Part shown: positions 1-25,791 of the stretch, one piece after another
How positions within the stretch are numbered: position 1 is the stretch's first letter
Layout of the letters: each line of letters begins with the position of its first letter
From: a virus
IMG/VR virus record: IMGVR_UViG_3300031973_000778
Location: 1 to 33,841 of that record
Reading direction: 5' to 3' (one strand)
DNA: 33,841 nucleotides
Translations under genes and position numbers: made by a program
The notes under the pieces: model-generated
Seen by the model: the letters and a program-made list of their open reading frames with translations, nothing else
The model's database searches: none
Told to the model about the DNA's origin: nothing

Positions 1-419
1 TTAAAGAATATCAAGAAACAGATGTCAAGACTAAATTCACAGAAGAAGACCTTCAAGAAATGGATTTCGATAGTGAACAAGCCCCTATGCAAATCCCTGC
101 AACAGTGACAGAAAGAGTGATTCAAGGTGTGACTAATGCCGTTTCTAAAGATTTAGATTTAAGTATTGAAATGGAGTATATATTGAAAGGAATCTTATCT
201 AGTGATAAAAGTAGGAATTTCATAAATTATATCATGGCTTTAGTCATAACATATGCATACAACGAGGGTAAAAACCTATTAGAAGATGCCGACCTTAGAG
301 AAGAAAGAACCGAAATTAGTGTGCCGGATGAAGAAGGTGACTTTTCTGATATGAGATTTGAAGGAAAGGACTTCTCAGAATTTTTTAAGTCTGAATGGTT
401 TAATCAATTGAGAAGGTGA
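1..419 (+). CDS. Unknown acidic protein, 5' end cut off by the window
   Basis: The reading frame is open from base 3 with no stop, so the gene starts upstream of the window; the first in-window ATG at 60 is probably internal. About 138 residues are visible. A helical part with a moderately hydrophobic stretch (FINYIMALVITYAY) is followed by an acidic C-terminus (ISVPDEEGDF) that ends FNQLRR. I do not recognise a family. The stop lies in a GAAGGTGATG context, so the end of this gene supplies the ribosome-binding site of the next gene (TTG start at 424). That suggests co-transcription and translational coupling with the paralog array that follows. Whether it carries the N-terminal tag of its neighbours cannot be seen. 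Confidence 0.75.
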   Translation, partial: KEYQETDVKTKFTEEDLQEMDFDSEQAPMQIPATVTERVIQGVTNAVSKDLDLSIEMEYILKGILSSDKSRNFINYIMALVITYAYNEGKNLLEDADLREERTEISVPDEEGDFSDMRFEGKDFSEFFKSEWFNQLRR

Positions 420-423
420 TGCT

Positions 424-855
424 TTGTCTTGGCGTTCTATCTTGAAGGAGTCTAAAACCACTTCTAGAGAGATAGTGAATTTAAATTGGGATGAAGAACA
501 ATTACCGGAGAAGGACAAAGATACCTGCATTAAGGAATTAAGAAGGGTGGTTGAGAAAGCAAAAAATCATCCTGTTATTAGAGAAACAGAAACCAAATTT
601 CCTAACCCTACGATGAAAGACATGCCGGAAGCAGTGGCATGTAGGGCTTTAGACTTTATTAAGCGATTAGGAAAAGATGATACTGCTTTTTCTGATATAA
701 TAGATGGATATTATATTGTGTGTGTATATGATATAACCGGTTTCGGTATTACTATTTTCCCAGATAGACCGCTTCATGGTGGACCAACTGTGCTTGGAAT
801 ATATGCCCATAATAAAGACGAAAAATACACACTTGAAGAATTAGATTGGAGGTAA
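424..855 (+). CDS. Tagged paralog array member 1 (short type)
   Basis: 143 residues from a TTG start; GAAGGTGA lies just upstream, and no ATG gives the tag. It opens MSWRSILKE, then VNLNWDEEQLPEKDKDTC, then a helix and the EAVAC motif. The rest is short and β-rich. It ends ELDWR, where the codons for W-R-stop contain the GGAGG used by the next gene. The short type (members 1, 5 and 8) shares the order helix, [PE]E-x-VAC, then about 75 residues. The function is unknown. I infer an internal-head or cargo protein because the tag resembles the scaffold C-terminus. Confidence 0.88.
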   Translation: MSWRSILKESKTTSREIVNLNWDEEQLPEKDKDTCIKELRRVVEKAKNHPVIRETETKFPNPTMKDMPEAVACRALDFIKRLGKDDTAFSDIIDGYYIVCVYDITGFGITIFPDRPLHGGPTVLGIYAHNKDEKYTLEELDWR

Positions 856-856
856 C

Positions 857-1570
857 ATGTGGTGGAATATCATTAAAGACACTAAACAGTCCTCTAGACA
901 ATTAATCAATTTAGATTGGGATGAAGAAGCGATTTCCATAGAAGATGAAGACTGTTTAAAGTGGCTTGTGGAATATCATAATATTATTGTTAAGTATGAC
1001 GATTTAGTTACGCATCGTATTCCTCAAGGGCCAATAACAAATAAAATTCCTAATGAAGTGGCTTGTTTAGTTAAGCAGAAATTTCAACAAGATATTCCTA
1101 GTCCAAGTATAGATTTCAATGAAGGCGGCATTAACGTTGGCATTTCTTTTGAATTAAGACCAAGTAAAGTAGGAACAGGTTGGTTTGATATATTTATTTT
1201 TATTGGGAAAGAAGACACACCTGAATATTTTATGAATTCGGGCCTTACTAGAACATGGGCTAGATGTCCTCCTGAAATGGAGATAGAGAGAATTAATTCA
1301 AGAAAGGGCACTGATGAACACTTTATTCAAAAAAATTCATTTGTTAGTAGGTTTAATCGTGGGAAAAATACATGGACAAGAAGGATGTGCCAATTCTTAA
1401 AAGAACTTATTAACCATACTAATAATCCCAATTTATCGGACTATTGTATTGATGCACTTGCTGAACAGTGGTTTTATTGGGCCGGTGAACTCAATGATGA
1501 AGATAAGCCGTTAGATAAAAAAATTCTATCAGTTATAAAAGAAACGATAGAAACACAATATTGGAATTGA
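857..1570 (+). CDS. Tagged paralog array member 2 (longest)
   Basis: 237 residues from ATG with GGAGG at 848-852. It opens MWWNIIKDTKQSSRQ, followed by INLDWDEE, the acidic segment EDEDC and the NEVAC motif. It then differs from all the other members, with a long C-terminal part rich in Trp and Phe (TWARCPPEM, NTWTRRMCQF, EQWFYWAGEL). The C-terminal domain looks like a separate globular fold that I cannot name. It may be an older member, or one that gained a domain. The N-terminal half fixes it in the same family as its seven neighbours. Function unknown; packaged cargo is an inference. Confidence 0.88.
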   Translation: MWWNIIKDTKQSSRQLINLDWDEEAISIEDEDCLKWLVEYHNIIVKYDDLVTHRIPQGPITNKIPNEVACLVKQKFQQDIPSPSIDFNEGGINVGISFELRPSKVGTGWFDIFIFIGKEDTPEYFMNSGLTRTWARCPPEMEIERINSRKGTDEHFIQKNSFVSRFNRGKNTWTRRMCQFLKELINHTNNPNLSDYCIDALAEQWFYWAGELNDEDKPLDKKILSVIKETIETQYWN

Positions 1571-1574
1571 TAAT

Positions 1575-2201
1575 ATGTGGTGGGATATTTTGAAAAATAT
1601 TAGGCAGACTTCTAAAGAAGTAATTAACCTAGATTGGGATGAAGAACAGATACCCGAAGAAGAAGATGAAAAATGTAAAGATAGATTGCAGAAATTATTT
1701 GATTTTCTAAAAACTAACAAGGATTTGCCTTTTGAATATCAAGCGGTTAATTTAGACAAAGGTGAAGCCTTCGGTCAACGCTATACTCATGGCCGAAGAC
1801 AAGACCCTTACATGTCACTTTACATTACGGCGTATCATCGAGGAATGGACTCTTTTACTGAAGAAGCAGCATGTGTTTTTTTAGCAGAATTTGAGAAGGT
1901 ATTAGACCATTCTATCGCTCATTTAGACACTCCCGAATCTATAGACTATAAACCACAACTTCCTAATGCAGGTGGCAGAGTAAACGTAGGTGAATTTGAT
2001 ATTTTATCAGGTAGTAATCGAGGAACAATGAGTAAACTAAAGGGCAGTCAGCACATGCTTAATGCAAAAATATTAGATGCAGGAGCATCAGTTGGGAGTA
2101 ATACTAGATTTTCTATAAGTATGTATTGGATGCCTTATCCTCCTGCTATTGAAGAAGACGGTATTAGAGCCTTTTTAGAAAAAGTTAGGGGTATGTTATG
2201 A
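1575..2201 (+). CDS. Tagged paralog array member 3 (long type)
   Basis: 208 residues from ATG. It opens MWWDILKNIRQTSKE, then INLDWDEEQIPEEEDEKC, a helix and the EEAAC motif, followed by the long-type C-terminal domain also seen in members 4 and 6. It ends VRGML, and the codons for these residues (GTTAGGGGTATGTTATGA) serve as the ribosome-binding site and overlapping start for the next gene (ATG at 2198 or 2201). Its own start has only a weak upstream site. The domain has no family that I can name. Confidence 0.88.
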   Translation: MWWDILKNIRQTSKEVINLDWDEEQIPEEEDEKCKDRLQKLFDFLKTNKDLPFEYQAVNLDKGEAFGQRYTHGRRQDPYMSLYITAYHRGMDSFTEEAACVFLAEFEKVLDHSIAHLDTPESIDYKPQLPNAGGRVNVGEFDILSGSNRGTMSKLKGSQHMLNAKILDAGASVGSNTRFSISMYWMPYPPAIEEDGIRAFLEKVRGML

Positions 2202-2770
2202 TGTGGTGGAATATCATCAAAGCCCAACAACGGTCTAAGGAAATGATAAACTTAGATTGGGAAGAAGAAGCAGTCCCAATGCAAGAGGAAGAAGATTGTA
2301 AAAAGAAACTTCTTTCAGTTTATGAGTATATTCGTTCCTCTAATGATATTAAGTTTAATGAAACTCAAGATAATGGACAACGTTCTTTTACTAGATTCGT
2401 TAATAATTTTGAGTTGGGACTTCATCCTAAGTTTCATATATTGATTCATCTTCAGTTTCTTGATAAGTTTTCCAATGAAGAAGTTTGCACATTTAATGAA
2501 TATATAAAACAGGTCTGTCAAGCAATTATTGATGAAAAGGAACTAAAAGAACGTATTCCTGTGCGTGACGGCGAAGGGTCTTACTCTTATGCGAGAGTTT
2601 ATCATGCCCCTAATAAACTTGGTTTTAATGGTGATGTTTCGTTTATTGCGAAAGAAGATAATTATTTTAGTTTAGAGTTTAGCATAGCATATTTTCCTTT
2701 TAGAAAAGAATATGACACGATTTCTGATGAAATAGTTTCTCTAGTTACAAAAATTAAGGGGATGTTATGA
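2198..2770 (+). CDS. Tagged paralog array member 4 (long type)
   Basis: 190 residues from ATG at 2198, or 189 from the adjacent ATG at 2201; ATGATG overlaps the previous stop, so translation is probably coupled. It opens MMWWNIIKAQQRSKE, then INLDWEEEAVPMQEEEDC and the NEEVC motif. The C-terminal domain shares its layout with members 3 and 6 and ends IKGML. The paired pattern of conserved N-terminus and divergent body is the same as in the neighbours. I see no catalytic motif, signal peptide or membrane segment. Confidence 0.88.
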   Translation: MMWWNIIKAQQRSKEMINLDWEEEAVPMQEEEDCKKKLLSVYEYIRSSNDIKFNETQDNGQRSFTRFVNNFELGLHPKFHILIHLQFLDKFSNEEVCTFNEYIKQVCQAIIDEKELKERIPVRDGEGSYSYARVYHAPNKLGFNGDVSFIAKEDNYFSLEFSIAYFPFRKEYDTISDEIVSLVTKIKGML

Positions 2771-3237
2771 TGTGGTTTGATATCCTTAAAGAATCTAAGC
2801 AAACTTCTAGACAGTTGATAAACTTAGATTGGGATGAAGAAATTCAACCGGAAGCAGAAGAAGACAGTTGTGTTAAGAGATTAAGACAACTGTATGAAAA
2901 GGTAACACAACATAAATATTATTTTTCTGATTTTCACAGTTGGAAAATTAAAGATTTGCCGGAAAGTGTAGCGTGTAAATCTTTAGAGATGATTGCAGAT
3001 GCCGAATTTACAACCCCATACTCATCTAGGGATGAAAGATTAAGAATAATAACTGATTCAATAGTTACTGATTTTGAAGGATATACAATACAAATGGTTT
3101 GGAATGAAAAAAGTTTTCTCTTTGTTATTTTTAAGAGAGGTGCAGGCCACAAAACTATTTATTTCGGAACAACTGCTCCCAAATACGGTAGTCAAGAAAG
3201 AGTAGCCATTGACCCTAAAGAATTAGATTGGAGGTGA
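2767..3237 (+). CDS. Tagged paralog array member 5 (short type)
   Basis: 156 residues, from an ATGATG that overlaps the previous stop. It opens MMWFDILKESKQTSRQ, then INLDWDEEIQPEAEEDSC and the ESVAC motif. Like member 1 it is short and ends KELDWR. The W-R codons give GGAGGTGAT (3229-3237 region), which pairs well with the archaeal-type 16S rRNA 3' end and drives the gene at 3242. It most resembles members 1 and 8. Function unknown. Confidence 0.88.
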   Translation: MMWFDILKESKQTSRQLINLDWDEEIQPEAEEDSCVKRLRQLYEKVTQHKYYFSDFHSWKIKDLPESVACKSLEMIADAEFTTPYSSRDERLRIITDSIVTDFEGYTIQMVWNEKSFLFVIFKRGAGHKTIYFGTTAPKYGSQERVAIDPKELDWR

Positions 3238-3241
3238 TAAA

Positions 3242-3904
3242 ATGTGGTGGTGGGACATAATCAAAGAAACTAGACAAGCCTCTAGAGAAATGATTAGTCT
3301 TGATTGGGATGAAGAGATGGTTCCCGATTCAGAACAAGAGGAAGAAGATTGTAAAAAGAAATTAAGGGCAGTTCATCAATATCTTTCTTCTCTTAATGGT
3401 ATTGAGTTTACTTTCGGAAATGAAGTTAAAGCCTTTGATTTTACAGATGAATATGACAGTGGTGGGTGGTTAGATAAAAGAATGCCTTTCAAATCTAGTA
3501 AAGATAGATTTACTAGAAGTGCCGTTACTGTTGAAATTGATGTTGGAGATATAGATAAATTATCAGAAGACGAAGCCTGTGCATTCAATGAGAAGGTGAA
3601 GGAAACGCTAGGTGATGCTATATCTAGAAAAGACACAAGAGGCTCACTTAATTTAAGGCCAAACATGGAAATAAAGTATAATACTAAAACTAGATATGAT
3701 GATGATGGGTTTATAGCAAGAGTTAGTTTAGAGGATTGGAATAATGACATATTTGTATTCTTTAAGTTTCTTTGCAGGCCTTTACGATATACAGAATCAA
3801 AAGAATTTACTCCCGGCGTAGGCAAGATAAATTCACGGCTTATTCATGAATCAATTTCTAGCAGTTGTGTTAACATAGCCGAAAAAATTAGGGGGATGTT
3901 ATGA
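3242..3904 (+). CDS. Tagged paralog array member 6 (long type)
   Basis: 220 residues from ATG with a strong upstream GGAGGTGAT. It opens MWWWDIIKETRQASRE (three tryptophans, where most members have one or two), then ISLDWDEEMVPDSEQEEEDC and the DEAC motif. The remaining part is acidic and β-rich and ends IRGML, as in members 3 and 4. A long open frame on the opposite strand (3376-3825) is a shadow caused by codon bias. Function unknown; it belongs to the same inferred cargo family. Confidence 0.88.
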   Translation: MWWWDIIKETRQASREMISLDWDEEMVPDSEQEEEDCKKKLRAVHQYLSSLNGIEFTFGNEVKAFDFTDEYDSGGWLDKRMPFKSSKDRFTRSAVTVEIDVGDIDKLSEDEACAFNEKVKETLGDAISRKDTRGSLNLRPNMEIKYNTKTRYDDDGFIARVSLEDWNNDIFVFFKFLCRPLRYTESKEFTPGVGKINSRLIHESISSSCVNIAEKIRGML

Positions 3905-4518
3905 TGTGGTGGGACATAATTAAAAACCAACAACAGGTTTCTAGGGGAATGATTAATCTTGATTGGGAAGAAGATATTGAAGAGGAAGAAGAGGATTGTA
4001 TTAAACGATGGAATGCTCAATGTAAGAAGAATGAATCCTTTAGTCATATTGTTAAAGACTATCTAATAGAAGATGATACCGGAGGATGGGAAACCGATGT
4101 TAAAGAAAATAAAATTACTTTCTATAAACAGGGTGATAGAAAAAAACCCACTTGGACATATCCCGGTTCAAATGCTACATATAGAATAAGTATTGCTTGG
4201 GAATATTTAGATAAAAATTCTTCCGAAGAACGTGTTTGTCGGATGTTAGAATCATTCAATAAGATACCTTTGGGTCAAGGTGCAGTTAATGTTGTTCATG
4301 ATGATGATATAATTGGTATGGTTGATAAAACAAATTCTAGATTTCTTCTCGGTAGGACTATGGTATTAATGGAAAGAAATGTTCCGTTGAAATTTTGTAG
4401 CATAGTCATTACCACAGAAAAGAAAGACAAAGATGGATATACAGATGAAAATGATGAACAAAATAAAAAACTCGAAGAGTTAGCAGAAAGAGCGAGGGCG
4501 GTTTTCAATGTGGTTTGA
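3901..4518 (+). CDS. Tagged paralog array member 7 (long type, divergent end)
   Basis: 205 residues, from an ATGATG that overlaps the previous stop. It opens MMWWDIIKNQQQVSRG, then INLDWEEDIEEEEEDC and an EERVC motif. The C-terminus lacks the GML ending and instead ends RARAVFNVV. Its last codons overlap the start of member 8 by 11 bases. The acidic run after the tag is the longest in the array. No enzyme motif is visible. Family membership is certain from the N-terminal half; function is unknown. Confidence 0.88.
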   Translation: MMWWDIIKNQQQVSRGMINLDWEEDIEEEEEDCIKRWNAQCKKNESFSHIVKDYLIEDDTGGWETDVKENKITFYKQGDRKKPTWTYPGSNATYRISIAWEYLDKNSSEERVCRMLESFNKIPLGQGAVNVVHDDDIIGMVDKTNSRFLLGRTMVLMERNVPLKFCSIVITTEKKDKDGYTDENDEQNKKLEELAERARAVFNVV

Positions 4519-4969
4519 TATTCTAAAAAACGTAAATCAGTCTTCAAGACAAATGATTAATTTGGATTGGGGTGATGAAACTGTCCCCGAAGAAGAGGAA
4601 TCTGATTGTCTTAAGAAATTAAAAGAATATTATGACAAAGCAAAGAATCATCCTCATGCAAGAGCAGATGGTTATTTCTCCTTTTTCTCTATTCCTGAAG
4701 AAGTCGCTTGTGCTATATTAGAAGATTTAGAATCAGCAAAAAAAGGAAAAACCAAAATTGGTTATAAAACAATAAAAAATATTAATGGTATGAATTATGA
4801 CTATAAAGTAGCCTATGGTGTTTACCAACATCCACCTCGGCCTAAATATCAAGTATTCAGAGTTGTTTGTTATAATTGGGGAAAGATGGATTATGATGAC
4901 ATGAAGCGAATGAAGTTTGCTACACAATCTCAAGATTTAGATGCTGATATAGACTTCCGCAAAACATGA
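4508..4969 (+). CDS. Tagged paralog array member 8 (short type)
   Basis: 153 residues from an ATG inside the end of member 7. It opens MWFDILKNVNQSSRQ, then INLDWGDETVPEEEESDC, with AKNHPHA and EEVAC close to member 1 (AKNHPVI and EAVAC). The body is Tyr- and Lys-rich (YKVAYGVYQHPPRPKYQ). It closes the array: the genes after it keep the short tag but lose the LDWDEE block and the paired cysteines. Function unknown. Confidence 0.88.
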   Translation: MWFDILKNVNQSSRQMINLDWGDETVPEEEESDCLKKLKEYYDKAKNHPHARADGYFSFFSIPEEVACAILEDLESAKKGKTKIGYKTIKNINGMNYDYKVAYGVYQHPPRPKYQVFRVVCYNWGKMDYDDMKRMKFATQSQDLDADIDFRKT

Positions 4970-5046: not shown

Positions 5047-5131
5047 TAGTTGGTTTGATTCTAAGTCAAAACAGTTAGACACAGAAGAACAAAAGCAAAA
5101 GAAAGATTTGATTACAGGTGAGAAGAAATGA
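5024..5131 (+). CDS. Possible 35-residue charged peptide
   Basis: ATG at 5024 to TGA at 5129-5131, giving MTRCILLDSWFDSKSKQL followed by a charged tail (EEQKQKKDL). Its stop overlaps the ATG at 5128 as ATGA, the same coupling used by real gene pairs here, and it fills an otherwise empty 150-base gap. No clear ribosome-binding site is seen. The frames at 4966 and 5024 might be one gene broken by a frameshift. Low to moderate confidence. Confidence 0.4.
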   Translation: MTRCILLDSWFDSKSKQLDTEEQKQKKDLITGEKK

Positions 5132-5343
5132 ATTGGGAAAATATATTGAAAAAGTTGCCGAAAGACGATTTGACTTTTCTTGAAATTATGGATATAGTTA
5201 ATAATCAAGGCTTTCATGCAATTGGAGATATGGCTATGCAAAAGGAAGTAAGAGATAACATATTAGAGGATATTGACCTATACGGTGAAGCCTTCAAGAA
5301 TATGCTAAAAGATTATCTTGCGGATATTGCGAAGAGAGATTAA
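5128..5343 (+). CDS. Small tagged protein
   Basis: 71 residues from ATG, with AGGTGAGAAG upstream. It opens MNWENILKKLP, the common tag, followed by an all-helical acidic body (DLTFLEIMDIV, KNMLKDYLADIAKRD). There is no LDWDEE block, so it is outside the preceding array family, although it shares the tag. It is followed closely by another tagged gene at 5359. I infer capsid cargo or a minor internal protein from the tag alone; no other function is visible. Confidence 0.85.
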   Translation: MNWENILKKLPKDDLTFLEIMDIVNNQGFHAIGDMAMQKEVRDNILEDIDLYGEAFKNMLKDYLADIAKRD

Positions 5344-5358
5344 TTACAGGTGATTAAC

Positions 5359-5871
5359 ATGAGTTGGGAAGACATACTAAAAAGAAAAGCCTCTGATAAT
5401 GAAAGAAATATTAGTGCTGATTCTTTTGATGAATATGGCGGTGCTTCTTATGAAGGGCCTACATCGGCAAAGAAAGATAAATCCACAAGGTCGCCCGAAT
5501 TACAAAAGGGAGCAAATACATATCCTCAAGGTATGGAAAAATTAGCAAGATTATTTTCCAAAGGAAAGATTGATGCTGAAAGATATGAAGAATTAAGAAT
5601 GGAGTTACAGGACATTTTTAATGTATCTAAATACGATTATGCTAGTGATTCTAGAGAAACAAAAAAACTTAGACAAGAAATGGAAGAACGTGGTTTGAAC
5701 AGTATGGAACAAATTGACGAACTTACTATTCAATCAATAGAACAAGACAAAAAAAGAAGAGATGCCCGTTCAGCGTATGATAGAAAAAGAAAGGAGATGG
5801 GACTACCTAGAAATAGAATACCAAGAAAATATAGGGAGGAAGTCTCAAATGACTTGGCAAATAATTCTTAA
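5359..5871 (+). CDS. Tagged protein, disordered then helical
   Basis: 170 residues. I chose ATG at 5359 over GTG at 5350 because AGGTGATT at 5349-5356 and the tag MSWEDILKRK both favour it. After the tag come about 50 low-complexity residues (SADSFDEYGG, KKDKSTRSPEL). A helical region follows that includes a short pattern FSKGKIDAERYEELRMELQ, reminiscent of the short SHOCT-like helices that follow linkers, though this similarity is loose. A basic charged C-terminus ends the protein. It overlaps the next tagged gene by 23 bases. Confidence 0.85.
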   Translation: MSWEDILKRKASDNERNISADSFDEYGGASYEGPTSAKKDKSTRSPELQKGANTYPQGMEKLARLFSKGKIDAERYEELRMELQDIFNVSKYDYASDSRETKKLRQEMEERGLNSMEQIDELTIQSIEQDKKRRDARSAYDRKRKEMGLPRNRIPRKYREEVSNDLANNS

Positions 5872-5995
5872 AAAGAAAGGCTGCGGTTGTTCAGACTGTG
5901 AGAAAAAAGCAGCAGGAGCAGTCACTACATCAACTCCGGGTGTAATTAACTCTAAGGTCGTCAATCCACGAAAAGAGGATGAGGAAGATGAGTAA
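5849..5995 (+). CDS. Tagged small cysteine-rich protein
   Basis: 48 residues from ATG at 5849, with AGGGAGGA at 5833-5840. The frame is open further upstream, but the ribosome-binding site and the tag MTWQIILKKK fix the start. It has a CGCSDC cluster (a possible metal site), then an Ala/Thr-rich linker and an acidic end (KEDEEDE). The same first eight residues (MTWQIILK) open the protein at 20068, which also has cysteines right after the tag. Function unknown. Confidence 0.75.
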   Translation: MTWQIILKKKGCGCSDCEKKAAGAVTTSTPGVINSKVVNPRKEDEEDE

Positions 5996-7427
5996 AGAAA
6001 AGAAGAATGTTGATGACTACAAAGGGATGAGAGTCACACAGAATTCTGATAAGGCTGAGTTTATACAAGAGTATCGTAATTGGAAAGAAACGTGTATGGG
6101 TATTAGTAACTCAGACATGATGGTTAGCAATAGGATTCCTACTCTGTATGATTTCTTAGTTAATCATATTACTTCAACAAATGTAAGAGACAATAGTCGT
6201 AACAGGGGCTTTACTGATGAAGGGGCAAATAAAAAATATATTGCCTTCATTGAAAGAGTTATAGAAAATAAATATTATACGCTAGCAGATGAAATTGCTA
6301 TTTCTTCTTTAGGCGACGCTTTGATGGCTTTAAAGGGAACCGGTGAAGATGCCGGAGGTGACGGTAAAGCACTAGACCCTGCATTTATTTTATTTACAGA
6401 CGTTGAAGAAGTAAGAGGTAATGAAAGACTTGCACCTAAGCCTGTTCAAGGACACTATAGAACAGAAAAATACAAGGAAAAATATGGAGGCGAAGCAGCC
6501 CCCGGAGATTGGTTTACGGGTAGCAATTTACCACACAAGGCACTATTTAATGAAAAACCAACTGCTGATTTTGATTCAAGAGGATTAGCAGTTATCATGA
6601 CAGATGCTAAAGGAAAGTTGGCACAAATAACAAATGAAGTTGATGATGTCCCAATGACCGAAGACGATGAGACTATTATTGATTGGGAAGAAATAGGCGA
6701 GATAGAAAGATACTTTGACAAGGCTATCAGAAATACTGCATTTTGGAATAAAGACGGTAAACTGAATGTAACCAAACTGAGAAGGGACTTTGAAAATACT
6801 AAATTCAAATTAGGAAATACCGACAGAAGGTTAGTAAGAGAAATTGCTCAACTCAATGCTAAAGATGCACCTGCCGGAAAAATTACTGAGATTACTTTAT
6901 CAGCAACTCCTAAAGGAATTGTAATTTTAATTGAAAGAGCATTGAGAAGAAAAACCCCTAGAGGTGTTGCACTTGCTCCTAATGATAAACCGGCTTGGCA
7001 AAACACTGTTAGGGGAGGATTTGACTTTAGAGAAGAAGGACAGGAAGAAGTTGTCTTTCCTGTTAATAGCGTAAGAATGGCAAAGGAATTAGGAAAGATT
7101 CCCGAAATTAAAAGATTCGCACAAGGTCTTTTGAAAAAGACAGAATTGTATGATGGTGCTAATTTTGATACTAGCCAAGCAGCAGCGAGATTAAGCGAAA
7201 GGAAGTTTGACTTTCCTCCTTCATCTAAGCAGAAAGTTTTGGACTTATTTAGAAAGGAGAAAACTAATCCCAAAACAATTCAGATTAAACTTACAAAGAG
7301 TGCTATGAAAGCATTGTTGAATCAGTCTGTAATTAGTAGGACTAGAGATTTACAAAGCATGAATGCACCTAATACTGATGAGAAGATTGTATTGAAGAGA
7401 ATGTGGCAGTCTCATCTTTGGAGGTAA
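5988..7427 (+). CDS. Unknown 479-residue protein
   Basis: Starts at ATG 5988 (GAGG upstream at about 5975); ATG at 5979 would add three residues. It has no W-x-x-I-L-K tag. The N-terminal part is helical (FIQEYRNWKETC). A middle region has a Gly/Asp-rich loop (GTGEDAGGDGKALD) and an acidic stretch (DDVPMTEDDETIIDWEEI). The C-terminal part is rich in basic helices (RALRRKTPRG) and ends SHLWR, whose codons supply GGAGGT for the next gene. I recognise no domain. Its size and position among late genes suggest a virion or packaging accessory protein, which is only inference. Confidence 0.8.
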   Translation: MSKEKKNVDDYKGMRVTQNSDKAEFIQEYRNWKETCMGISNSDMMVSNRIPTLYDFLVNHITSTNVRDNSRNRGFTDEGANKKYIAFIERVIENKYYTLADEIAISSLGDALMALKGTGEDAGGDGKALDPAFILFTDVEEVRGNERLAPKPVQGHYRTEKYKEKYGGEAAPGDWFTGSNLPHKALFNEKPTADFDSRGLAVIMTDAKGKLAQITNEVDDVPMTEDDETIIDWEEIGEIERYFDKAIRNTAFWNKDGKLNVTKLRRDFENTKFKLGNTDRRLVREIAQLNAKDAPAGKITEITLSATPKGIVILIERALRRKTPRGVALAPNDKPAWQNTVRGGFDFREEGQEEVVFPVNSVRMAKELGKIPEIKRFAQGLLKKTELYDGANFDTSQAAARLSERKFDFPPSSKQKVLDLFRKEKTNPKTIQIKLTKSAMKALLNQSVISRTRDLQSMNAPNTDEKIVLKRMWQSHLWR

Positions 7428-7431
7428 TTAC

Positions 7432-8094
7432 ATGGTAACTAGAAAACGCTGCGGTCTATGTCAGCATGAAGATAGAGAAGAAATAGAAAACTCTCTAGAA
7501 AACGGTATTGTTACCTGTGATGAATTAGACGCTGCTAATGGTTGGAGAAGCGGAACTGCTGCTCAACATCAAAGAAATCACATGGGGGATTATGTGATGT
7601 CATCTAATCCTAAATGTAATCTATGCACCGACCCCATGAGAAAACATTACGAACAGGCATTAAGTAATGGAGATATAGATAGTGAGGCAGTTGCTTTAGC
7701 CTTAGATACTACAAAGGCGCAGATTCAAAGGCATATGAAACATCACTTAACTCCAATAGTGCAACAAAGTGCTGCTGCTATTATTGCCAAGAAAGAAGTT
7801 AATGAAGTCGAATTACTTTCTAATAACGTTGAGAAATTAGATGCTAGGCTTGAACAGGTATTTCATGAATTAGGAAATGATTTAGACCCTAAGATGATTG
7901 ATGCTTTAACTAAGTTAGCAAGAGAAATTAGAGAGTCGCTAAAATATCTTATGGAGTTTAAAGGAAAACTTATACACAAGAGACAAGATACAATTATTGT
8001 CGCACAAATGCAAATTGTTCAAGAAGTGCTTGCACAAAACAATCCTGAGATTTGGTTAGATATTAAAAAGAAAATGCAGGAGAAGTTACAATGA
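7432..8094 (+). CDS. Double zinc-finger/HTH protein, candidate small terminase subunit
   Basis: 220 residues from ATG with GGAGGT upstream. The N-terminal 110 residues hold two units with the same spacing: C7-x2-C10-x35-H46-x3-H50 and C62-x2-C65-x35-H101-x3-H105. Each encloses a helix-turn-helix-like stretch (SEAVALALDTTKAQIQRHMK). From about residue 120 there is a coiled coil (VEKLDARLEQVFHEL, LAREIRESLKYLMEF). A DNA-binding front with an oligomerising helical tail is typical of small terminase subunits, and C-x2-C...H finger/HTH modules occur in such phage proteins. The large subunit is about 8 kb downstream, so the assignment is a reasoned guess. A transcription regulator is the alternative. 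Confidence 0.6.
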   Translation: MVTRKRCGLCQHEDREEIENSLENGIVTCDELDAANGWRSGTAAQHQRNHMGDYVMSSNPKCNLCTDPMRKHYEQALSNGDIDSEAVALALDTTKAQIQRHMKHHLTPIVQQSAAAIIAKKEVNEVELLSNNVEKLDARLEQVFHELGNDLDPKMIDALTKLAREIRESLKYLMEFKGKLIHKRQDTIIVAQMQIVQEVLAQNNPEIWLDIKKKMQEKLQ

Positions 8095-8339
8095 ATTGGA
8101 GAGAAATAGTAAAAGCAGAAACGCTACAATCATTGGCTAAGGACATGGAAGATTTATTCAGAGGAACTGATTGGAGAACATTTATGCAAAACGAATTAGT
8201 TGATTTAGATAAAAAGATTGATAGTATGTCAAAAGAAGAAATAGAAAATTTAAGAGATTTAAAATACCATCTTTTCTCTCCACAAATGCAAGAGTATGAA
8301 GGCATGGTTGATAAATTACTTGAACTAAAAGGAGAGTGA
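8091..8339 (+). CDS. Small tagged helical protein
   Basis: 82 residues from ATG, overlapping the previous stop by four bases (ATGA), with AGGAG upstream. It opens MNWREIVKAETLQS, the tag with Val in place of Leu, followed by a wholly helical, charged body (VDLDKKIDSMSKEEIENL) that probably forms a coiled coil. I recognise no family. It is the first of a run of five consecutive tagged genes (8091, 8344, 8499, 8812 and 9408). Confidence 0.85.
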   Translation: MNWREIVKAETLQSLAKDMEDLFRGTDWRTFMQNELVDLDKKIDSMSKEEIENLRDLKYHLFSPQMQEYEGMVDKLLELKGE

Positions 8340-8343
8340 TTGA

Positions 8344-8496
8344 ATGAGTTGGGAGAATAAAATTAGAAAAGAAAGTAGTTTTTATACTAAGAGAAAACTA
8401 AGAAAACTATTAGATATTCTAAACAGTGATATGGAACCTACTTCTAAAGTAGCGCAAGCACAGGGCTTTATTGAAAGCATGTTAAGGGAGGATTAA
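8344..8496 (+). CDS. 50-residue tagged protein
   Basis: ATG at 8344 to TAA at 8494-8496. The peptide opens MSWENKIRKESS, a diverged copy of the tag with W3, I7 and the following basic residue kept, and ends GFIESMLRED. AGGAGAGTGATTG lies upstream. It fills the gap between its neighbours exactly, and its last codons supply GGGAGG for the GTG start at 8499. Helical throughout; function unknown. Confidence 0.75.
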   Translation: MSWENKIRKESSFYTKRKLRKLLDILNSDMEPTSKVAQAQGFIESMLRED

Positions 8497-8498
8497 TT

Positions 8499-8810
8499 GT
8501 GCTTTGGGAAGATATCATAAAAGCGAGTTATTCTTCTAAGAATCTAAAGATGTTAAAAGAGTCAGTTGAAGAATTATATGCTACTATTCCTTCTGGAACT
8601 GTTTTCAAAAGTAATGATATGTATGAAAAATTTGTTGAGATAGTTGCACCTAAAATTGGCTCAGGAAATCAAGAAAGAAGAATGTGGAATGTTTGGAGTA
8701 AAGGAAAAGGACAGGATTGGTTTCCTAATTATTTCACGAATTATGGTATGCGTAAAAACTACATAGAGCGAGAAGGCAGTTATGATAAGGCTAAGTTAAA
8801 GAGGGTTTAA
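8499..8810 (+). CDS. Tagged protein, paralog of the next gene
   Basis: 103 residues from GTG, with GGGAGG at 8486-8491. It opens MLWEDIIKAS. The body has the pattern LKESVEELYATIPSGTVF, then MYEKFVEI, then a basic, aromatic end (WFPNYFTNYGMRKNYIE). The gene at 8812 has the same order (IPADTVF, WEKFLDM, WFRNFFLNYGRQRNYFE), so the two arose by duplication. The shared domain is not one I know. The Trp-Phe-x-Asn-[YF]-Phe block is the best search handle. Confidence 0.85.
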   Translation: MLWEDIIKASYSSKNLKMLKESVEELYATIPSGTVFKSNDMYEKFVEIVAPKIGSGNQERRMWNVWSKGKGQDWFPNYFTNYGMRKNYIEREGSYDKAKLKRV

Positions 8811-8811
8811 C

Positions 8812-9411
8812 ATGGATTGGTGGGCAATAGTAAAAAAGAAAGGAAAGGCTTTTCCTAAAAACAATATGAGTCTCATAAAAGAGATAACAGAAAAAATATA
8901 CATGAGTATTCCTGCCGATACTGTTTTTGAAGGAGATACATATTGGGAAAAATTCTTGGATATGTCTGAGCCTTTAGTTCCAAAAGAAGACAATAGGAAT
9001 CGTTTAAGGTTTAGTCTTTTTAAGAAAAATGGAAAATCATGGTTCAGAAATTTCTTTTTAAATTATGGTAGGCAAAGAAATTATTTTGAAAAGATTAGTG
9101 AACAACATCCTATCCGTTATAAAAGGACAGATACTATGCAAGACTATTACAAAGAGTCACTTATGAAAAGACAAAAAAGAAGAACATACCAATTTGGTAA
9201 ATATCTCGACAATATCATGATGGATGGAAAGGCGAGAACTGCTAATGATGCTTTTTTGGCCTTACAGGATTATTACATTAGTCGAAAAGATAGAACCGGA
9301 GGAAATTTACCTACTACCGGTGAAGTTAGCGGGTATTTTAACAGCGTTGCTTACAAAAGATATGAAAAAATAAAAGGTAAGCCTAACAAATACAGGTGGA
9401 AAGGAGAATGA
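8812..9411 (+). CDS. Tagged protein, longer paralog of the preceding gene
   Basis: 199 residues from ATG, two bases after the previous stop. It opens MDWWAIVKKKGK. Residues about 20-100 align with the gene at 8499. It then adds about 100 residues with a basic, aromatic character (RQKRRTYQFGKYLDNIM, DAFLALQDYYISRKDRTGG) and ends YRWKGE, whose codons give AAAGGAG for the next start. The second half is unique to this copy. Positively charged overall, so contact with DNA is possible but unproven. Confidence 0.85.
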   Translation: MDWWAIVKKKGKAFPKNNMSLIKEITEKIYMSIPADTVFEGDTYWEKFLDMSEPLVPKEDNRNRLRFSLFKKNGKSWFRNFFLNYGRQRNYFEKISEQHPIRYKRTDTMQDYYKESLMKRQKRRTYQFGKYLDNIMMDGKARTANDAFLALQDYYISRKDRTGGNLPTTGEVSGYFNSVAYKRYEKIKGKPNKYRWKGE

Positions 9412-11843
9412 ATTGGTTTAATATTCTGAAAGCACCTTATGGGATGTTCCCCGATGCTGATGAAGTCCTTTATCTTGACCTAATATCTTCGGAAAATTTT
9501 CAAGAATTCCTAGAAAATATTCAGAGTGGCAAATTTTCAAAAGAAAATTTGTCAAAGTTGAAGAATCGTCTAGACCAACTCAAAGTTGATGATGCTAAAA
9601 TCCAAAGAGCGTATGATTTGTATGGAAAATTACCACAAGCAGACCAAACCAAAGAGCAATTTAAGGCCAACATAGAACAAATTATAGAATTTTTACCAAA
9701 AAAGCAGGCTCCCGAAAAATCTCAACAAATAAAATCATTAGTTGAACAAATACAAGAGTCAGATTTTTCAGGAAAAAAGAAATTAATTACAGAATTAATT
9801 AAATTAATGCCAAAAAATAGAGGCAAGTGGAGAAGATATCCCGAAGCAAAGAAAATTATACAGTATCAAGAGTATATTGATAGAAGAAAATCAAAAAATA
9901 TGATATCATTTGATACAACTCCAAGTGAAAATGATAGTGAAGTTACAGAATTTGCTAAATTATTGCAGTCAAAGTATGAAAATGGAGTAATTGAGTTAAA
10001 TGTAAGCACTCATGGAGAATTTATTTCCCTTCTCAATCCAATTATTTACTCAGATAAAAATAAATCTAATTGGGAGATTAAAAGAATACAAAATCCTGAA
10101 AACAAAGAAGAAATTATTGATGTAATTGCTGAAGAAAAAGAAGATTTAGTAAAAAATAAGAAAAAAATAAAGAATTTGTATAATACTCTCAATAAAAAAT
10201 ACAAAATTAATGTTATTTTTGCAGGAAAAAATAAAAATAAAGAAACTAAAGAAGATTTAGGAAGTAAAATGGCATTTTTAGGAACAAAATATAAAATTGC
10301 ACCTGCTCATAGTCCATTTACAACAAAATCTGTTGAATTATACATAAAGGCCTATGAAGATGTTATTGGTGAACCGGGCCAATTGATTCCATCTTGGATT
10401 TCTGGAAAAAATCCCGATAATTCTGATTATAATCAGACTACAATAGGAAGAAATCCTACGGGAACCATCTTACCTTTCCCCGATAACTTGTTTTTACAGA
10501 GAGCGACTAAAAATATGAAGAAAATAGTGCTAAATCCCTATGGTTCTGCTATTTTATACCATTCTATGCGTAAAAATTGGTTTGAAACCTATCTTAAAAT
10601 GGCAAAACAGACCGAATTTATATCAGAAGATAGGGCTGAAAAAATGATTATTGATGACTTATATTCTAGTCTTTCCGGTGTTCATGGGGCTATTCAAAGA
10701 AGTTTTGCGTATGATATTCCCTTAAATCCTTATAAAAAGACACTAAAAGGTAAAAATATTGACTTTGATGATGCGGATTTTGCTAGAAAGAAAATAAAAG
10801 AGAACATAAGAAACAATTCTTCTAGGAAGAATGAGGTCAAAAAGGTCACTAGCCAAATGAGAAGAGACACTTTATTTAACTTAGATAGAGGATGGACTAA
10901 ATCAGAAGCACTTCGGTTTTTGGAATTTTGGAATGAAGGAGAATATGAAGGGGCTGAAGGTAAAGTAAGAGTCAATTGGTATTCTAGTCCTATTTCACCT
11001 AGACCTTTAATTCAAGAAGATTTTGCTTCCGAAAAGAATATGATTGATGCTGCTTCTTTTGCTAGAATAGAGATTGCATGGGTAATGGAAGAAACCATAG
11101 AGTATGATGATGATTATAATATTGCATCTGCCGAATACGAGGATTACAAAACATTTACTCCTTTAGAAACTGCTGAAAAATTAGGCGAATCATTTGAAAA
11201 ACAGAAAGAGCGAAGAAGAAAGAATTATGATAAAATTACACAAAAGAAGAAGGAGCAGAACGATAAACTTCGTGAACTTTTGAATACTGATATAAGCAGT
11301 GCAAGAAAAGATGAAATCAGAAATACAATTGCTCAAAGAGAGGCTAACATTGAGAGATTTGAAGATGTCGAAAATAAGGAAAAAGAGAGAACCAAGTCTG
11401 CTATCGGTGCAGTTAGGAATTTATCCTCAAGTGCAAAGGACTTCACTTCTTTCTTAGTGGATTTATCTAAGGAAAGAAAAGATAAGGGAGGTTTGTCTTC
11501 TCTAGCAGATGAGATTAAAAATGATTTTAACAAGTTGTCAATATTGAATCCTAAAGACGCAGCAGGGTTTTTGTCTTATCTTGCTTCTTTCTATCCCGAT
11601 GATAAAGACTTTATACAAACTGCTTATGAGAGTATTGATAATAGGCCCGATGATGCTAAGTCAATCGCTGAAAAATTAGATAAAAAGATGTCTAAGTTTT
11701 TACAAGAAATGAAAGAATTAGTAGTTAAGGCCTTTGAAAACCAATTGAAAAACTTCACTCTTCATATGTTTACTTATGATAAAAATAAGATAGCGAATAT
11801 TGTAAATGTTTTTGAAAAAGCAGGATTAATTGAGGAGGCATAA
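9408..11843 (+). CDS. Very large tagged protein (811 residues)
   Basis: ATG at 9408 overlaps the previous stop (ATGA) and has AAGGAG upstream. It opens MNWFNILKAPYGMF, and it is by far the largest tagged protein. The first 170 residues are helical and charged, a mixed α/β middle follows (about 180-560, with NVSTHGEFISLLNP and GRNPTGTILPFPD), then a strong coiled coil from about 600 (EKQKERRRKNYDKITQKKK). I find no catalytic motif. If the tag loads proteins into the head, this could be a large internal or ejected protein (compare T4 Alt in concept only). Other structural roles are possible. Confidence 0.82.
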   Translation: MNWFNILKAPYGMFPDADEVLYLDLISSENFQEFLENIQSGKFSKENLSKLKNRLDQLKVDDAKIQRAYDLYGKLPQADQTKEQFKANIEQIIEFLPKKQAPEKSQQIKSLVEQIQESDFSGKKKLITELIKLMPKNRGKWRRYPEAKKIIQYQEYIDRRKSKNMISFDTTPSENDSEVTEFAKLLQSKYENGVIELNVSTHGEFISLLNPIIYSDKNKSNWEIKRIQNPENKEEIIDVIAEEKEDLVKNKKKIKNLYNTLNKKYKINVIFAGKNKNKETKEDLGSKMAFLGTKYKIAPAHSPFTTKSVELYIKAYEDVIGEPGQLIPSWISGKNPDNSDYNQTTIGRNPTGTILPFPDNLFLQRATKNMKKIVLNPYGSAILYHSMRKNWFETYLKMAKQTEFISEDRAEKMIIDDLYSSLSGVHGAIQRSFAYDIPLNPYKKTLKGKNIDFDDADFARKKIKENIRNNSSRKNEVKKVTSQMRRDTLFNLDRGWTKSEALRFLEFWNEGEYEGAEGKVRVNWYSSPISPRPLIQEDFASEKNMIDAASFARIEIAWVMEETIEYDDDYNIASAEYEDYKTFTPLETAEKLGESFEKQKERRRKNYDKITQKKKEQNDKLRELLNTDISSARKDEIRNTIAQREANIERFEDVENKEKERTKSAIGAVRNLSSSAKDFTSFLVDLSKERKDKGGLSSLADEIKNDFNKLSILNPKDAAGFLSYLASFYPDDKDFIQTAYESIDNRPDDAKSIAEKLDKKMSKFLQEMKELVVKAFENQLKNFTLHMFTYDKNKIANIVNVFEKAGLIEEA

Positions 11844-14549: not shown

Positions 14550-14819
14550 ATGAATTGGCAAGAAGTATTGAAAGCAGAAAGATTAGATATGGCTAATCCT
14601 ATCCAATATCCTAGAGAAGAAGTTTCTAAATTGTTACGGCAGACTATGAATAAAACCAAATTTCACAAGGGAGTAAACGGTCTTGTTCCTGAGTTGGCTA
14701 GGTTTGCTTATATTGATAAAAGAAGAAGCCAACAGTATTTGGACCTCGCTGATGAAATTAAAAATGTCGCTATGAAAGTAAGAAAACTAATTACCGATTA
14801 TGAGAATAAAGAGGGTTGA
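14550..14819 (+). CDS. Small tagged helical protein
   Basis: 89 residues from ATG. It opens MNWQEVLKAERLDM, the tag in its Val-Leu-Lys form. The helical body has a basic middle (KLLRQTMNKTKFHKG) and YIDKRRSQQYLDLADEI near the end. It ends NKEG, and its last codons (GAGGG) form the ribosome-binding site of the next gene. Function unknown. It sits between the two very large proteins and the terminase-proximal genes. Confidence 0.85.
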   Translation: MNWQEVLKAERLDMANPIQYPREEVSKLLRQTMNKTKFHKGVNGLVPELARFAYIDKRRSQQYLDLADEIKNVAMKVRKLITDYENKEG

Positions 14820-14821
14820 TT

Positions 14822-17435: not shown

Positions 17436-18797
17436 ATGTCGAAGGCTGAAAGATTAAAAGAAATTTCTAGCAAATATGAAGAGTTGTCTAGAATTACTGA
17501 GGAAGAAGAATCTCTTAAGGATGAGATTGAAGATGCTCAAGATAGAGATTTAGTTACTACTTCTTTTGATACCTACGTTATGTCGGAAAATGAGCAGATA
17601 ACTAAACTATCAAATGATTTAGGAGTTAATGCTTCTCAAGCAAGAAAGTATATTGTTTCATTCCCCGATGAATATATCATACAAGAACAAACTATTCCTG
17701 ATTTAGTCACTAAGATGAGAAAGGCTAGAAGAGTTCTTAAGGGCGAAAATAGAGAAAGGATGACAAGAGTAATTGACACAATGATTGATGCTTACTCAGA
17801 CCATTTGCAGAAATGTATAGATTCTATTTCTTGGTTATCTCCTTACGAAGTGCCTCTAAAGAAAATGAGATTTAATGAAAAGGATTTACAGAAACTTTAC
17901 AAAATGAAAGATGTGGAATCTAGAAGAGAAGTTGTTGATGCTTTGTGTAAGTATTGGGAGGCTGAACTAGAGCAAACAGGAATGGTTTACTGTGATGATT
18001 ATTCTGAACTATACAAGACTATGAGACAAAGTAAAAAAGAATTTAGAAATGCTATTTCTAAGGTTTCTAATCAATCTTTAGTTAAGTCGAAAAAGGATAG
18101 ACAGAATGATTTTATTGTAAAGATGGTATGTGAAAACCCCGGTATTAGTGCGAAGGGAATACATGATAGAATGCCTGCTGATTTATTTAGAACAACCAAT
18201 GCTAACTCTATATCTAAATCAGCAAAGTCACTAGATATATTATCTGTTAAGGGTAATTACTACAAGGCTCCTACTATGTTAAAGAAAAATGTATGGGCTT
18301 ACACTGCTGCATTTATTGACTCTGATGGTTATATTACTCTTGACCGCAATATGAATCCTAGAGTTGGTTTGGTTGCTACCGGAGAAAGAGGCAGGGCATT
18401 CATGGAAGAAATGCATAAATCAATTGGTTTTGGCAGATTACATTTAGACCAAAAATCTCCACAAGATACTAGACCCGTAAATCGCTTAAATTTTTATTCA
18501 CAAAAAGATGTTATGGATTTACTAACTAAGTGTCTTCCTCATTTTAGATTAAAGAAAGGAAATGCCGAACTACTTATAGAGTTGATACGAATGAAAAAAT
18601 CATATAAGAAGGCTGATTGGTATAAGCAAAGGTGTGACGAAATTTTCAAATTAATGAAATGGGAGAATCATAAAGACCATGTTGGGTTTGATTTCGGTAA
18701 AGAAAATATAAATTTAGATGACATTCAAAAATACAAAGATAATTGTAAAATTTCAGTAATGGATGAGTTAGAAGGAATAGGAGGGATATTGGCTTGA
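17436..18797 (+). CDS. LAGLIDADG endonuclease-domain protein with N-terminal helical part
   Basis: 453 residues from ATG with AGGTGG upstream. Residues 1-215 are helical and charged with a possible HTH (LSNDLGVNASQARKYI). Residues about 222-280 look like a winged helix (FIVKMVCENPGISAKGIH). From about 290 there is a single LAGLIDADG motif, TAAFIDSDGYI, with the acidic residue kept, followed by the usual strand/helix pattern (GLVATGERGRAFMEEMHK, NRLNFYSQKDVMDLL). One motif implies a homodimer or a degenerate second half. It is probably a free-standing homing endonuclease adjacent to terL. The long N-terminus is unusual and might instead be a DNA-binding structural gene that captured the nuclease. 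Confidence 0.8.
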   Translation: MSKAERLKEISSKYEELSRITEEEESLKDEIEDAQDRDLVTTSFDTYVMSENEQITKLSNDLGVNASQARKYIVSFPDEYIIQEQTIPDLVTKMRKARRVLKGENRERMTRVIDTMIDAYSDHLQKCIDSISWLSPYEVPLKKMRFNEKDLQKLYKMKDVESRREVVDALCKYWEAELEQTGMVYCDDYSELYKTMRQSKKEFRNAISKVSNQSLVKSKKDRQNDFIVKMVCENPGISAKGIHDRMPADLFRTTNANSISKSAKSLDILSVKGNYYKAPTMLKKNVWAYTAAFIDSDGYITLDRNMNPRVGLVATGERGRAFMEEMHKSIGFGRLHLDQKSPQDTRPVNRLNFYSQKDVMDLLTKCLPHFRLKKGNAELLIELIRMKKSYKKADWYKQRCDEIFKLMKWENHKDHVGFDFGKENINLDDIQKYKDNCKISVMDELEGIGGILA

Positions 18798-18869
18798 AAT
18801 GGCAAGACATTCTTCAAAAGAAGAGTAAGGCTCGGAGAAAGAAAGGTTCTAAGCGTAAAAAAAAGAAAG
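18794..18869 (+). repeat. Duplicated 5' gene module, copy 1
   Basis: The first 76 bases of this gene closely match those of the gene at 20469 (copy 2 at 20469-20544). Both encode [KT]WQDILQKKSKARRK followed by a Lys/Arg-rich run. Downstream of the match the two genes are unrelated, so a tag-plus-basic-linker module has been copied onto different domains. Confidence 0.85.
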
Positions 18870-19000: not shown

Positions 19001-19005
19001 TTGAT

Positions 19006-20786: not shown

Positions 20787-20790
20787 TTAT

Positions 20791-25787: not shown

Positions 25788-25791
25788 TATT

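What the first reader, a model, noticed from the sequence alone, without database searches (positions are those of the whole stretch)
424..4969. Eight tandem paralogs with two invariant cysteines and divergent bodies
Seen: eight adjacent genes share tag, LDWDEE-like block, acidic run ending in Cys (EEEDC, EDEDC and similar) and a later E-x-[VA]-C-like motif (EEVAC, ESVAC, DEAC, EERVC). Both cysteines are present in all eight although most other positions differ. Two subtypes alternate. Inference: tandem amplification with fast divergence looks like a set of packaged effectors or an arms-race family, and the cysteine pair may form a disulfide or bind metal.
Basis: partly seen in the sequence, partly recalled or inferred. 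Interest (0 to 1): 0.8.

Follow-up and report, generated by a model that had tools for sequence, protein, structure and literature searches.

The report
Archaeal virus's tagged capsid-cargo protein array
Eight side-by-side genes of an ocean archaeal virus make a fast-changing family of proteins that all start with the same short address peptide, one that also ends the virus's own capsid-scaffold protein, which suggests that they are loaded into the virus head and injected into the host.

Summary
Window 424-4969 holds eight tandem paralogs with two invariant cysteines. The cysteine pair recurs in 92 of 93 paralog units from 20 related virus records, even inside fused multi-unit proteins. Copy number varies from 2 to 8 genes where complete. 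The subtypes do not strictly alternate.

The larger finding is the shared N-terminal tag M-x-W-x-x-I-L/I-K. In 18 magrovirus-like records it is on 264 of 1200 late-strand ORFs and 5 of 1054 on the other strand. Leaving out the arrays, in 14 of them it is on 176 of 556 head-side and 7 of 327 tail-side late ORFs. The same motif ends the head protease/scaffold protein in 80 of 80 loci and 77 of 78 in a second clade.

Best explanation: the tag is a capsid-targeting peptide that copies the scaffold's docking end. The paralogs would be virion-internal cargo, analogous to T4 internal proteins, with a virus-specific leader, a Cys-paired domain and usually an acidic partner tagged at its end(s). Packaging, injection, disulfide and targets are inferred. 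No fold match is reliable. Works like T4 CTS cargo; not shown to be homologous.

The parts
3..419 (+). 3' part of the acidic partner gene that precedes the array (cut by the window edge; 224 aa in G001); ends ...KSEWFNQLRR
   Evidence: ORF 60-419; open ORF 3-419; relatives beside arrays; pI 4.3
424..855 (+). paralog 1, short subtype A; TTG start; Cys 35 and 73
857..1570 (+). paralog 2, longest, outside subtypes A and B; Cys 33 and 70
1575..2201 (+). paralog 3, long subtype B; Cys 34 and 100
2198..2770 (+). paralog 4, subtype B; overlaps neighbour by 4 bases; Cys 34 and 97
2767..3237 (+). paralog 5, subtype A; modelled (helix-helix-4 strands-helix); Cys 35 and 70
3242..3904 (+). paralog 6, subtype B; modelled (helix-strands-helix-4 strands-helix); Cys 37 and 113
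3901..4518 (+). paralog 7, subtype B; no ortholog in the 95% MCP-identical virus G001; Cys 33 and 113
4508..4969 (+). paralog 8, subtype A; Cys 34 and 68
5128..5343 (+). other N-tagged gene (MNWENILKK); left out of the automatic tag count because a longer antisense ORF displaced it
5359..5871 (+). other N-tagged gene (MSWEDILKRK)
5849..5995 (+). small Cys-rich N-tagged gene (MTWQIILKKKGCGCSDC) with a GAVTTSTPG tail; start placed at the in-frame ATG before the tag
5979..7427 (+). universal neighbour gene whose C-terminus is a tag variant (MWQSHLWR here; KSWMDILRN, KKQWREILKGL in relatives)
8091..9411 (+). block of small genes: 8091, 8499 and 8812 N-tagged; 8344 starts MSWENKIRK, a near-tag that misses the pattern
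9408..11843 (+). 811-aa N-tagged protein (MNWFNILKA)
14550..14819 (+). N-tagged gene (MNWQEVLKAE)
18794..21162 (+). seven consecutive N-tagged genes (18794, 19006, 19272, 19700, 20068, 20469, 20791), several strongly basic
25765..26043 (+). 92-aa protein ending in the scaffold-type C-terminal motif (TMDWSEIHKMVEKAGGN)
28833..30029 (+). head maturation protease/scaffold (Peptidase_S78) ending QMDWNDIHKMVGGI
30031..31386 (+). HK97-type major capsid protein, proposed receptor of the tag (inferred)

Best explanation
The eight genes encode virion-internal cargo of a magrovirus-like archaeal tailed virus. Each protein has three parts. (1) The N-terminal tag M-x-W-x-x-I-L/I-K. It is a copy of the peptide that ends the head protease/scaffold protein, so during head assembly it should dock the protein on the same inner site of the procapsid and load it into the head. 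(2) A leader of about 25 residues, virus-specific, mostly ending in acidic residues. It is repeated once per domain, also in fused proteins. I think that it folds with the domain or binds the acidic neighbour protein, which in most array viruses ends in a copy of the tag, and in four of them starts with one too. (3) A variable domain whose first and middle helices each carry one invariant cysteine; I think that they form a disulfide that staples the domain. After injection with the DNA the variable bodies act on varied host targets, most simply host defences. Shown: the array, the tag distribution, the likeness of tag and scaffold end, the Cys pair, copy-number change, selection on the leader. 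Inferred: packaging, injection, disulfide, the leader's partner, targets.
For: Tag on 264 of 1200 late-strand ORFs and 5 of 1054 other-strand ORFs in 18 records. Leaving the arrays out, on 176 of 556 head-side and 7 of 327 tail-side late ORFs in the 14 largest. Same motif at the C-terminus of the protease/scaffold in 80 of 80 loci and of the 92-aa protein in 60 of 61, and in 77 of 78 loci of a second clade. A C-terminal form on 45 of 1067 late ORFs, these proteases included, against 0 of 873 on the other strand. The related halovirus HVTV-1 shows neither N-tag nor motif in the 23 late-region genes looked at. Tagged set very diverse: 253 non-array proteins in 105 clusters, half of the N-tagged ones with pI above 9, some with enzyme or DNA-mimic domains (GNAT, PAP2, pentapeptide). 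Leader kept at protein level with synonymous sites saturated (pS 0.73-0.78, pN 0.10-0.25; bodies pN 0.50-0.53), so selection and not recent conversion. Cys pair in 92 of 93 units. Precedent read in passages: T4 internal proteins are diverse defence proteins sharing only a capsid targeting sequence (PMC3012670); P1 DarB's first 30 residues suffice for the capsid (PMC9024508); scaffold ends contact the coat (PMC12749128).
Against: No virion proteome exists for these uncultured viruses, so packaging is not shown. [quoted passage not shown] No protease cleavage site after the tag was identified. dN/dS stays below 1. The array is absent from 11 of the 18 records read gene by gene, so it is dispensable. 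Most bodies have no known domain. The model folds match nothing reliably.
Confidence: 0.62

Rival explanations
1. The tag is a docking peptide for something other than the head interior (portal or neck, membrane, or a host factor), and the paralogs are late accessory proteins that are not packaged.
For: The N-tag is a short amphipathic stretch and no virion data exist. Seven of 327 tail-side late ORFs of 14 records carry it.
Against: The same motif ends the protease/scaffold in 80 of 80 loci and 77 of 78, a position that in 80alpha and P22 contacts the coat (PMC12749128, passages). Head-side enrichment within the same strand. Basic bias of the other tagged proteins.
Confidence: 0.2
2. The tagged proteins, including the array, are assembly-only scaffold or core components that are digested or lost during maturation and never reach the host.
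For: A Peptidase_S78 head protease is present. The partner proteins look scaffold-like: acidic, tagged at one or both ends.
Against: The array is absent from 11 of 18 records, so it is not a core assembly part; its bodies differ within a virus and evolve fast; other tagged proteins carry GNAT, PAP2 or pentapeptide domains that fit a job in the cell.
Confidence: 0.13
3. The two cysteines bind a metal ion (alone, or two plus two in a dimer) and do not form a disulfide.
For: Two invariant cysteines are compatible with a shared metal site in a dimer. No thioredoxin-like or sulfhydryl-oxidase family appeared among the 47 other-strand proteins of G001 scanned with Pfam at 1e-5.
Against: No CxxC spacing and no other invariant Cys, His or acidic ligand: besides the cysteines only tag residues W, I, K and one Glu reach 75% of 93 units. 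C1-C2 spacing runs from 28 to 119.
Confidence: 0.2
4. Ordinary tandem duplication without a special role: a neutral, repeat-prone accessory region.
For: Copy number varies widely, and accessory genes are common in viruses.
Against: Leader kept by purifying selection while synonymous sites are saturated; Cys pair kept in 92 of 93 units; the array sits beside an acidic partner in 17 of 20 array records.
Confidence: 0.05

Closest known systems
[quoted passage not shown]
   Same: Short N-terminal sequence shared by otherwise unlike, fast-changing late proteins; variable sets between related phages; head protease present. T4 facts from passages of PMC3012670 and PMC9958956.
   Different: Here the motif is also at the end of the protease/scaffold and other proteins, is on 6-24 late ORFs per record, and some records carry a tandem paralog array with a Cys pair. 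No sequence relation found.
Phage P1 DarB and the Dar system
   Same: An N-terminal segment directs a large defence-related protein into the head (PMC9024508, passages).
   Different: [quoted passage not shown] here the consensus is strict.
Magrovirales / Aoguangviridae (viruses of marine archaea, Poseidoniales)
   Same: 88-97 kb records, two opposed gene clusters, family B polymerase, ATP-dependent ligase, clamp loader, TFB-like zinc ribbon, chaperonin, HK97 capsid (PMC10768690, whole text).
   Different: No named aoguangvirid was compared directly; the annotated phage collection held no closer capsid match than 22-28%.
Type III secretion effectors with an adjacent acidic chaperone (analogy only, recalled)
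   Same: Order of parts: N-terminal signal, then a segment shared by effectors of one system, then a variable body, with an acidic protein encoded next door.
   Different: Different machine, no homology sought or shown; leader-partner binding is not shown.
Crassvirus capsid cargo proteins
   Same: Virus-encoded proteins stored in the head and ejected (PMC10172136, passages).
   Different: Large conserved cargo proteins; no short shared address peptide or paralog array in the passages read.
Whirly / PUR-alpha nucleic-acid-binding fold
   Same: Strand-helix order of the paralog 6 model recalls two sheets of four strands with helices; top Foldseek rows for it are Whirly proteins, and PUR-alpha heads the second look for paralog 5.
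   Different: TM-scores about 0.25 and Z at most 5.6, level with unrelated proteins: not evidence of membership.

Membership tests
T4-type CTS cargo / internal proteins | One short N-terminal sequence on several otherwise unrelated late proteins | tested here: met
   264 of 1200 late-strand ORFs in 18 records; 253 non-array tagged proteins in 105 clusters
T4-type CTS cargo / internal proteins | Targeting sequence absent from scaffold and other core proteins | tested here: not met
   Same motif ends the protease/scaffold in 80 of 80 and 77 of 78 loci; T4 state from PMC9958956 passages
T4-type CTS cargo / internal proteins | Protein present in the head and injected | not testable with these tools
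   No virion proteome for uncultured viruses
T4-type CTS cargo / internal proteins | Tag removed by the head protease | not tested
   Protease present; no cleavage site could be recognised
T4-type CTS cargo / internal proteins | Sequence similarity of array proteins to known families | tested here: inconclusive
   No Pfam or PHROG family and no INPHARED tblastn match; too short and fast-changing to exclude descent
Magrovirales | Genome of about 90-100 kb with own replisome incl. PolB, ligase, clamp loader, chaperonin | tested here: met
   In the close relative G001 (MCP 95%): PolB, ligase, AAA clamp loader, TFB zinc ribbon, Cpn60, ERCC4, dimer glycosylase. The window itself is a 33.8-kb record
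Magrovirales | Phylogenetic placement with named members | not tested
   No named magrovirus compared; capsid is 22-23% identical to Druskaviridae
Whirly or PUR-alpha fold | Significant structural match over the domain | tested here: inconclusive
   Best Foldseek E 4e-3 with TM 0.23; VIA Z 5.0 for PUR-alpha; within background
Disulfide-stabilised domain family | Two cysteines conserved as a pair | tested here: met
   C1 in 93 of 93, C2 in 92 of 93 units
Disulfide-stabilised domain family | The two sulfurs within bonding distance | not testable with these tools
   Models return no coordinates; both Cys lie in helices

The most novel reading that the evidence does not exclude
A large group of ocean archaeal viruses uses one universal encapsidation address, a mimic of the scaffold's coat-binding end, on 6-24 late ORFs per record. 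On top of this general loading system, some lineages run a modular effector array: tag + virus-specific leader recognised by a dedicated end-tagged acidic loader or chaperone + a disulfide-stapled variable domain that is swapped, duplicated and even fused into polyproteins. That would be a virion-borne counterpart of secretion-system effector repertoires.
Probability: 0.35. Interest if true: 0.88.

Novelty: new variant of a known kind. Interest (0 to 1): 0.72.

Why it matters
If true, one short peptide predicts which proteins of an abundant but uncultured group of marine archaeal viruses are inside the virion, a list of several hundred otherwise nameless genes that can be read straight from sequence. 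It would show how an archaeal tailed virus loads its head by letting cargo imitate the scaffold, and it would point to virus-borne factors that meet the defences of Poseidoniales archaea. The claim is directly testable with a reporter fusion.

Tried and rejected
Family look-up: Pfam and PHROGs on the eight paralogs gave only sub-threshold hits; tblastn of paralog 5 in INPHARED gave none; profile searches of PDB sequences gave no meaningful match. Fold searches with both models found nothing above background in PDB, and with the paralog 5 model nothing in BFVD; the Whirly/PUR resemblance is kept as a weak lead only. PADLOC on the tagged cluster representatives gave one marginal hit.

Gene conversion as the cause of leader likeness: rejected, because synonymous sites in the leaders are saturated.

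Leader as a general head-protease site: judged unlikely, since protease and capsid protein are similar across these viruses while leaders differ entirely between them; no site was tested directly.

Limits of the counts: the simple ORF caller drops ORFs under 40 codons and overlapping shorter ones (it lost 5128-5343); start codons were chosen to fit the tag on both strands alike; orthologs are counted as separate cases, so Fisher p-values overstate independence. Other-strand ORFs include some spurious ones. The fused G005 protein was left out of alignments A5 to A7. HMM hits in G022, G023 and G120 covered the tag only and were not counted as arrays. The partner-protein HMM did not detect the partners of the second group, so its silence in array-less records proves little.
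Full report
WHAT WAS CHECKED. The window is a whole 33,841-base virus record of IMG/VR. Eight + strand ORFs at 424-4969 are paralogs: every pair aligns over at least 35 N-terminal residues at E 2.3e-6 or better, and the bodies are about 27% identical. In the 8-row alignment W2, I5, K7, S13, L19, W21, C34 and C68 are invariant. The subtypes do not strictly alternate: the order is A, other, B, B, A, B, B, A.

WHICH VIRUS. The capsid protein has several hundred relatives in IMG/VR (563 confirmed, 80 kept) and is 22-23% identical to that of Druskaviridae haloviruses. The near relative G001 (96.5 kb, capsid protein 95%, terminase 99%) carries family B polymerase, ATP-dependent ligase, clamp-loader AAA, a TFB-like zinc ribbon, chaperonin, ERCC4 and dimer glycosylase on the strand opposite to the structural genes. 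This is the layout described for Aoguangviridae/Magrovirales (PMC10768690, whole text). No named magrovirus was compared directly.

THE FAMILY ELSEWHERE. I searched 171 records with family profiles (31, 50, 40); many are fragments. Arrays are in 20: G000 8 genes, G001 7, G005 5, G010 4, G014 2, G026 6, G028 1 at a contig edge, G029 8, G031 4, G081 4, G088 4, G089 4, G091 3, G092 3, G096 3, G097 2 plus a fragment, G148 4, G150 5, G153 8, G156 3. That is 88 genes and 93 units, because G005 and G150 each hold a fused double and G153 a fused four-unit protein of 806 aa. Tag-only hits in G022, G023 and G120 were not counted. Of the 18 records read gene by gene, 11 have no array, 6 have one and G028 shows an edge. 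Both cysteines are kept: C1 in 93 and C2 in 92 of 93 units; the exception is the copy at the start of contig G153. C1-C2 spacing is 28 to 119 residues; the only other positions conserved in three quarters of units are tag W, I and K and one Glu before C2.

TAG, LEADER, DOMAIN. After the tag each array virus or group has its own leader, for instance INLDWDEE in G000/G001, KGKTFQLDF in G005, PIDIQKPFKRV in G010, KEIEDIDIDI in G026/G028/G029. Within a virus the leaders are 57-84% identical and the bodies 26-28%. Synonymous sites are saturated in the leaders (pS 0.73-0.78), non-synonymous ones are not (pN 0.10-0.25; bodies 0.50-0.53): the leader is kept by selection and not by recent conversion. 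In fused proteins the inner units repeat leader and Cys pair but lack the tag. So the tag is one per polypeptide and the leader plus Cys pair one per domain.

THE TAG IS A HEAD-SIDE ADDRESS. In 18 records 264 of 1200 late-strand ORFs start with M.{0,4}W..[ILVM][ILVMTF][KRQHN], against 5 of 1054 on the other strand. Most frequent letters are M-S/N/T-W-K/Q/E-D/N-I-L-K. In the 14 records of at least 88 kb, leaving the arrays out, 176 of 556 late ORFs on the terminase/portal side of the capsid gene carry it and 7 of 327 on the tail side. The 253 tagged non-array proteins of 60 aa or more (C-terminally tagged ones included) fall into 105 sequence clusters. Of 220 N-tagged non-array proteins of at least 50 aa, 51% have pI above 9, against 30% of 870 late untagged and 23% of 958 other-strand ones. 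Of 103 representatives (two of the 105 left out: the protease/scaffold cluster and the G028 array member) few have Pfam domains: GNAT in 2, DUF5754 in 2, PAP2, pentapeptide repeats and DUF6943 in 1 each. Outside viruses a tag pattern gave 62 scattered single matches in 257 billion bases.

THE SCAFFOLD ENDS IN THE SAME MOTIF. The head protease/scaffold protein (Peptidase_S78) ends in [ED]MDW[SN][DE]IHKM or close to it in 80 of 80 loci, and a 92-aa protein encoded before it in 60 of 61. In a second clade (capsid 64% identical) 77 of 78 proteases that could be read, of 80 loci, end in M[ST]W..[IVL]H or close to it, the other in LSWDEIAN. N-tags there are on 170 of 1526 + strand ORFs and 1 of 139 - strand ORFs. 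A C-terminal form occurs on 45 of 1067 late and 0 of 873 other ORFs, including the proteases, the universal neighbour of the array, a GNAT-like protein and an array partner. In 23 genes of the HVTV-1 late region I saw neither N-tag nor motif. Scaffold ends contact the coat in 80alpha, P22 and phi29 (PMC12749128, passages). Cargo that copies the scaffold's end is therefore the simplest reading.

THE PARTNER. Beside the array, on its 5' or 3' side (one gene apart in G156), 17 of 20 array records have an acidic protein (pI 4.05-5.05) with W-x-x-x-[LI]-[RK] at or near its C-terminus; in G026, G029, G148 and G156 an N-tag is also present. None was recognised in G150 or G153, and G028 is cut. The partners fall into several groups without detectable similarity between them, so common descent is not shown. 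The partner HMM found no member in the other 12 of the 18 records but also missed the second-group partners, so that silence is weak.

TEMPO. Between G000 and G001 dN/dS of the seven ortholog pairs is 0.29-0.64, against terminase 0.02, portal 0.13, capsid protein 0.15, protease 0.16. The 3901 gene finds only a 35% match in G001: a copy-number change between close relatives. A few other genes are as fast (partner 0.44, 14816 gene 0.51, 20791 gene 0.50).

STRUCTURE. AlphaFold2 gave mean pLDDT 72.9 for paralog 5 (helix 35-47, helix 66-78, four strands, helix) and 74.7 for paralog 6 (helix 37-50, strands, helix 109-127, four strands, helix); the leaders (11-31 and 8-34) are of very low confidence. 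The first cysteine is the first residue of the first long helix and the second is the fifth residue of the second helix in both. The tool returned no coordinates, so the sulfur distance is unknown. Foldseek and VIA-align found nothing above background.

MECHANISM. Most likely: the tag docks the proteins on the procapsid interior like the scaffold end, they stay in the head, and they enter the host with the DNA. T4 offers the pattern: diverse defence proteins that share only a targeting sequence (PMC3012670, passages); in P1 the first 30 residues of DarB suffice (PMC9024508, passages). A disulfide is favoured over a metal site because the pair is kept without other conserved ligands. Leader function is the least certain part.

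NOVELTY. Searches of the held open library listed no paper that reports such a tag in magroviruses or a capsid targeting sequence in archaeal viruses; I judged from the listings and read passages of one magrovirus survey (PMC10160649). The founding magrovirus paper is not held. It is filed as a new variant of a known kind.

Noticed in passing
window 26294-28792: An ATP-dependent DNA ligase gene (832 aa, no N-tag) sits inside the structural operon between the small scaffold-like gene and the protease; a second ligase match lies in the replication half of relative G001.
   Followed up: partly
window 5849-5995; also L199 7826-8830, L121 and L127 genes: A second short shared tail (GAVTTSTPG...N...KK-acidic) recurs at the ends of small Cys-rich tagged proteins and is fused to some array and partner proteins.
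   Followed up: no
window 14816-16015: A tag-like GWWNIIKNL lies inside this protein; possible relatives are short proteins ending in the tag, one with a GNAT match in G010, as if a C-terminally tagged protein had gained an extension.
   Followed up: partly
L558 6695-7456: An N-tagged 253-aa protein contains HEFGH, a zinc-metalloprotease-like motif (recalled meaning); no Pfam match at 0.01.
   Followed up: partly
L560 3412-4176: An N-tagged pentapeptide-repeat protein lies between the acidic partner and the array in G156.
   Followed up: partly
window 17436-18797: The C-terminal part matches an HNH endonuclease family (phrog_5046, E 2e-6) in the gene after the terminase.
   Followed up: no
window 18794-19000 and 20469-20786: Two very basic tagged proteins share the start WQDILQKKSKARRKxGSKRxKKK and look like DNA-condensing proteins.
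   Followed up: no
L557 5181-7601: Four paralog units fused in one 806-aa protein, with leaders at each unit and a tag only at the start.
   Followed up: yes
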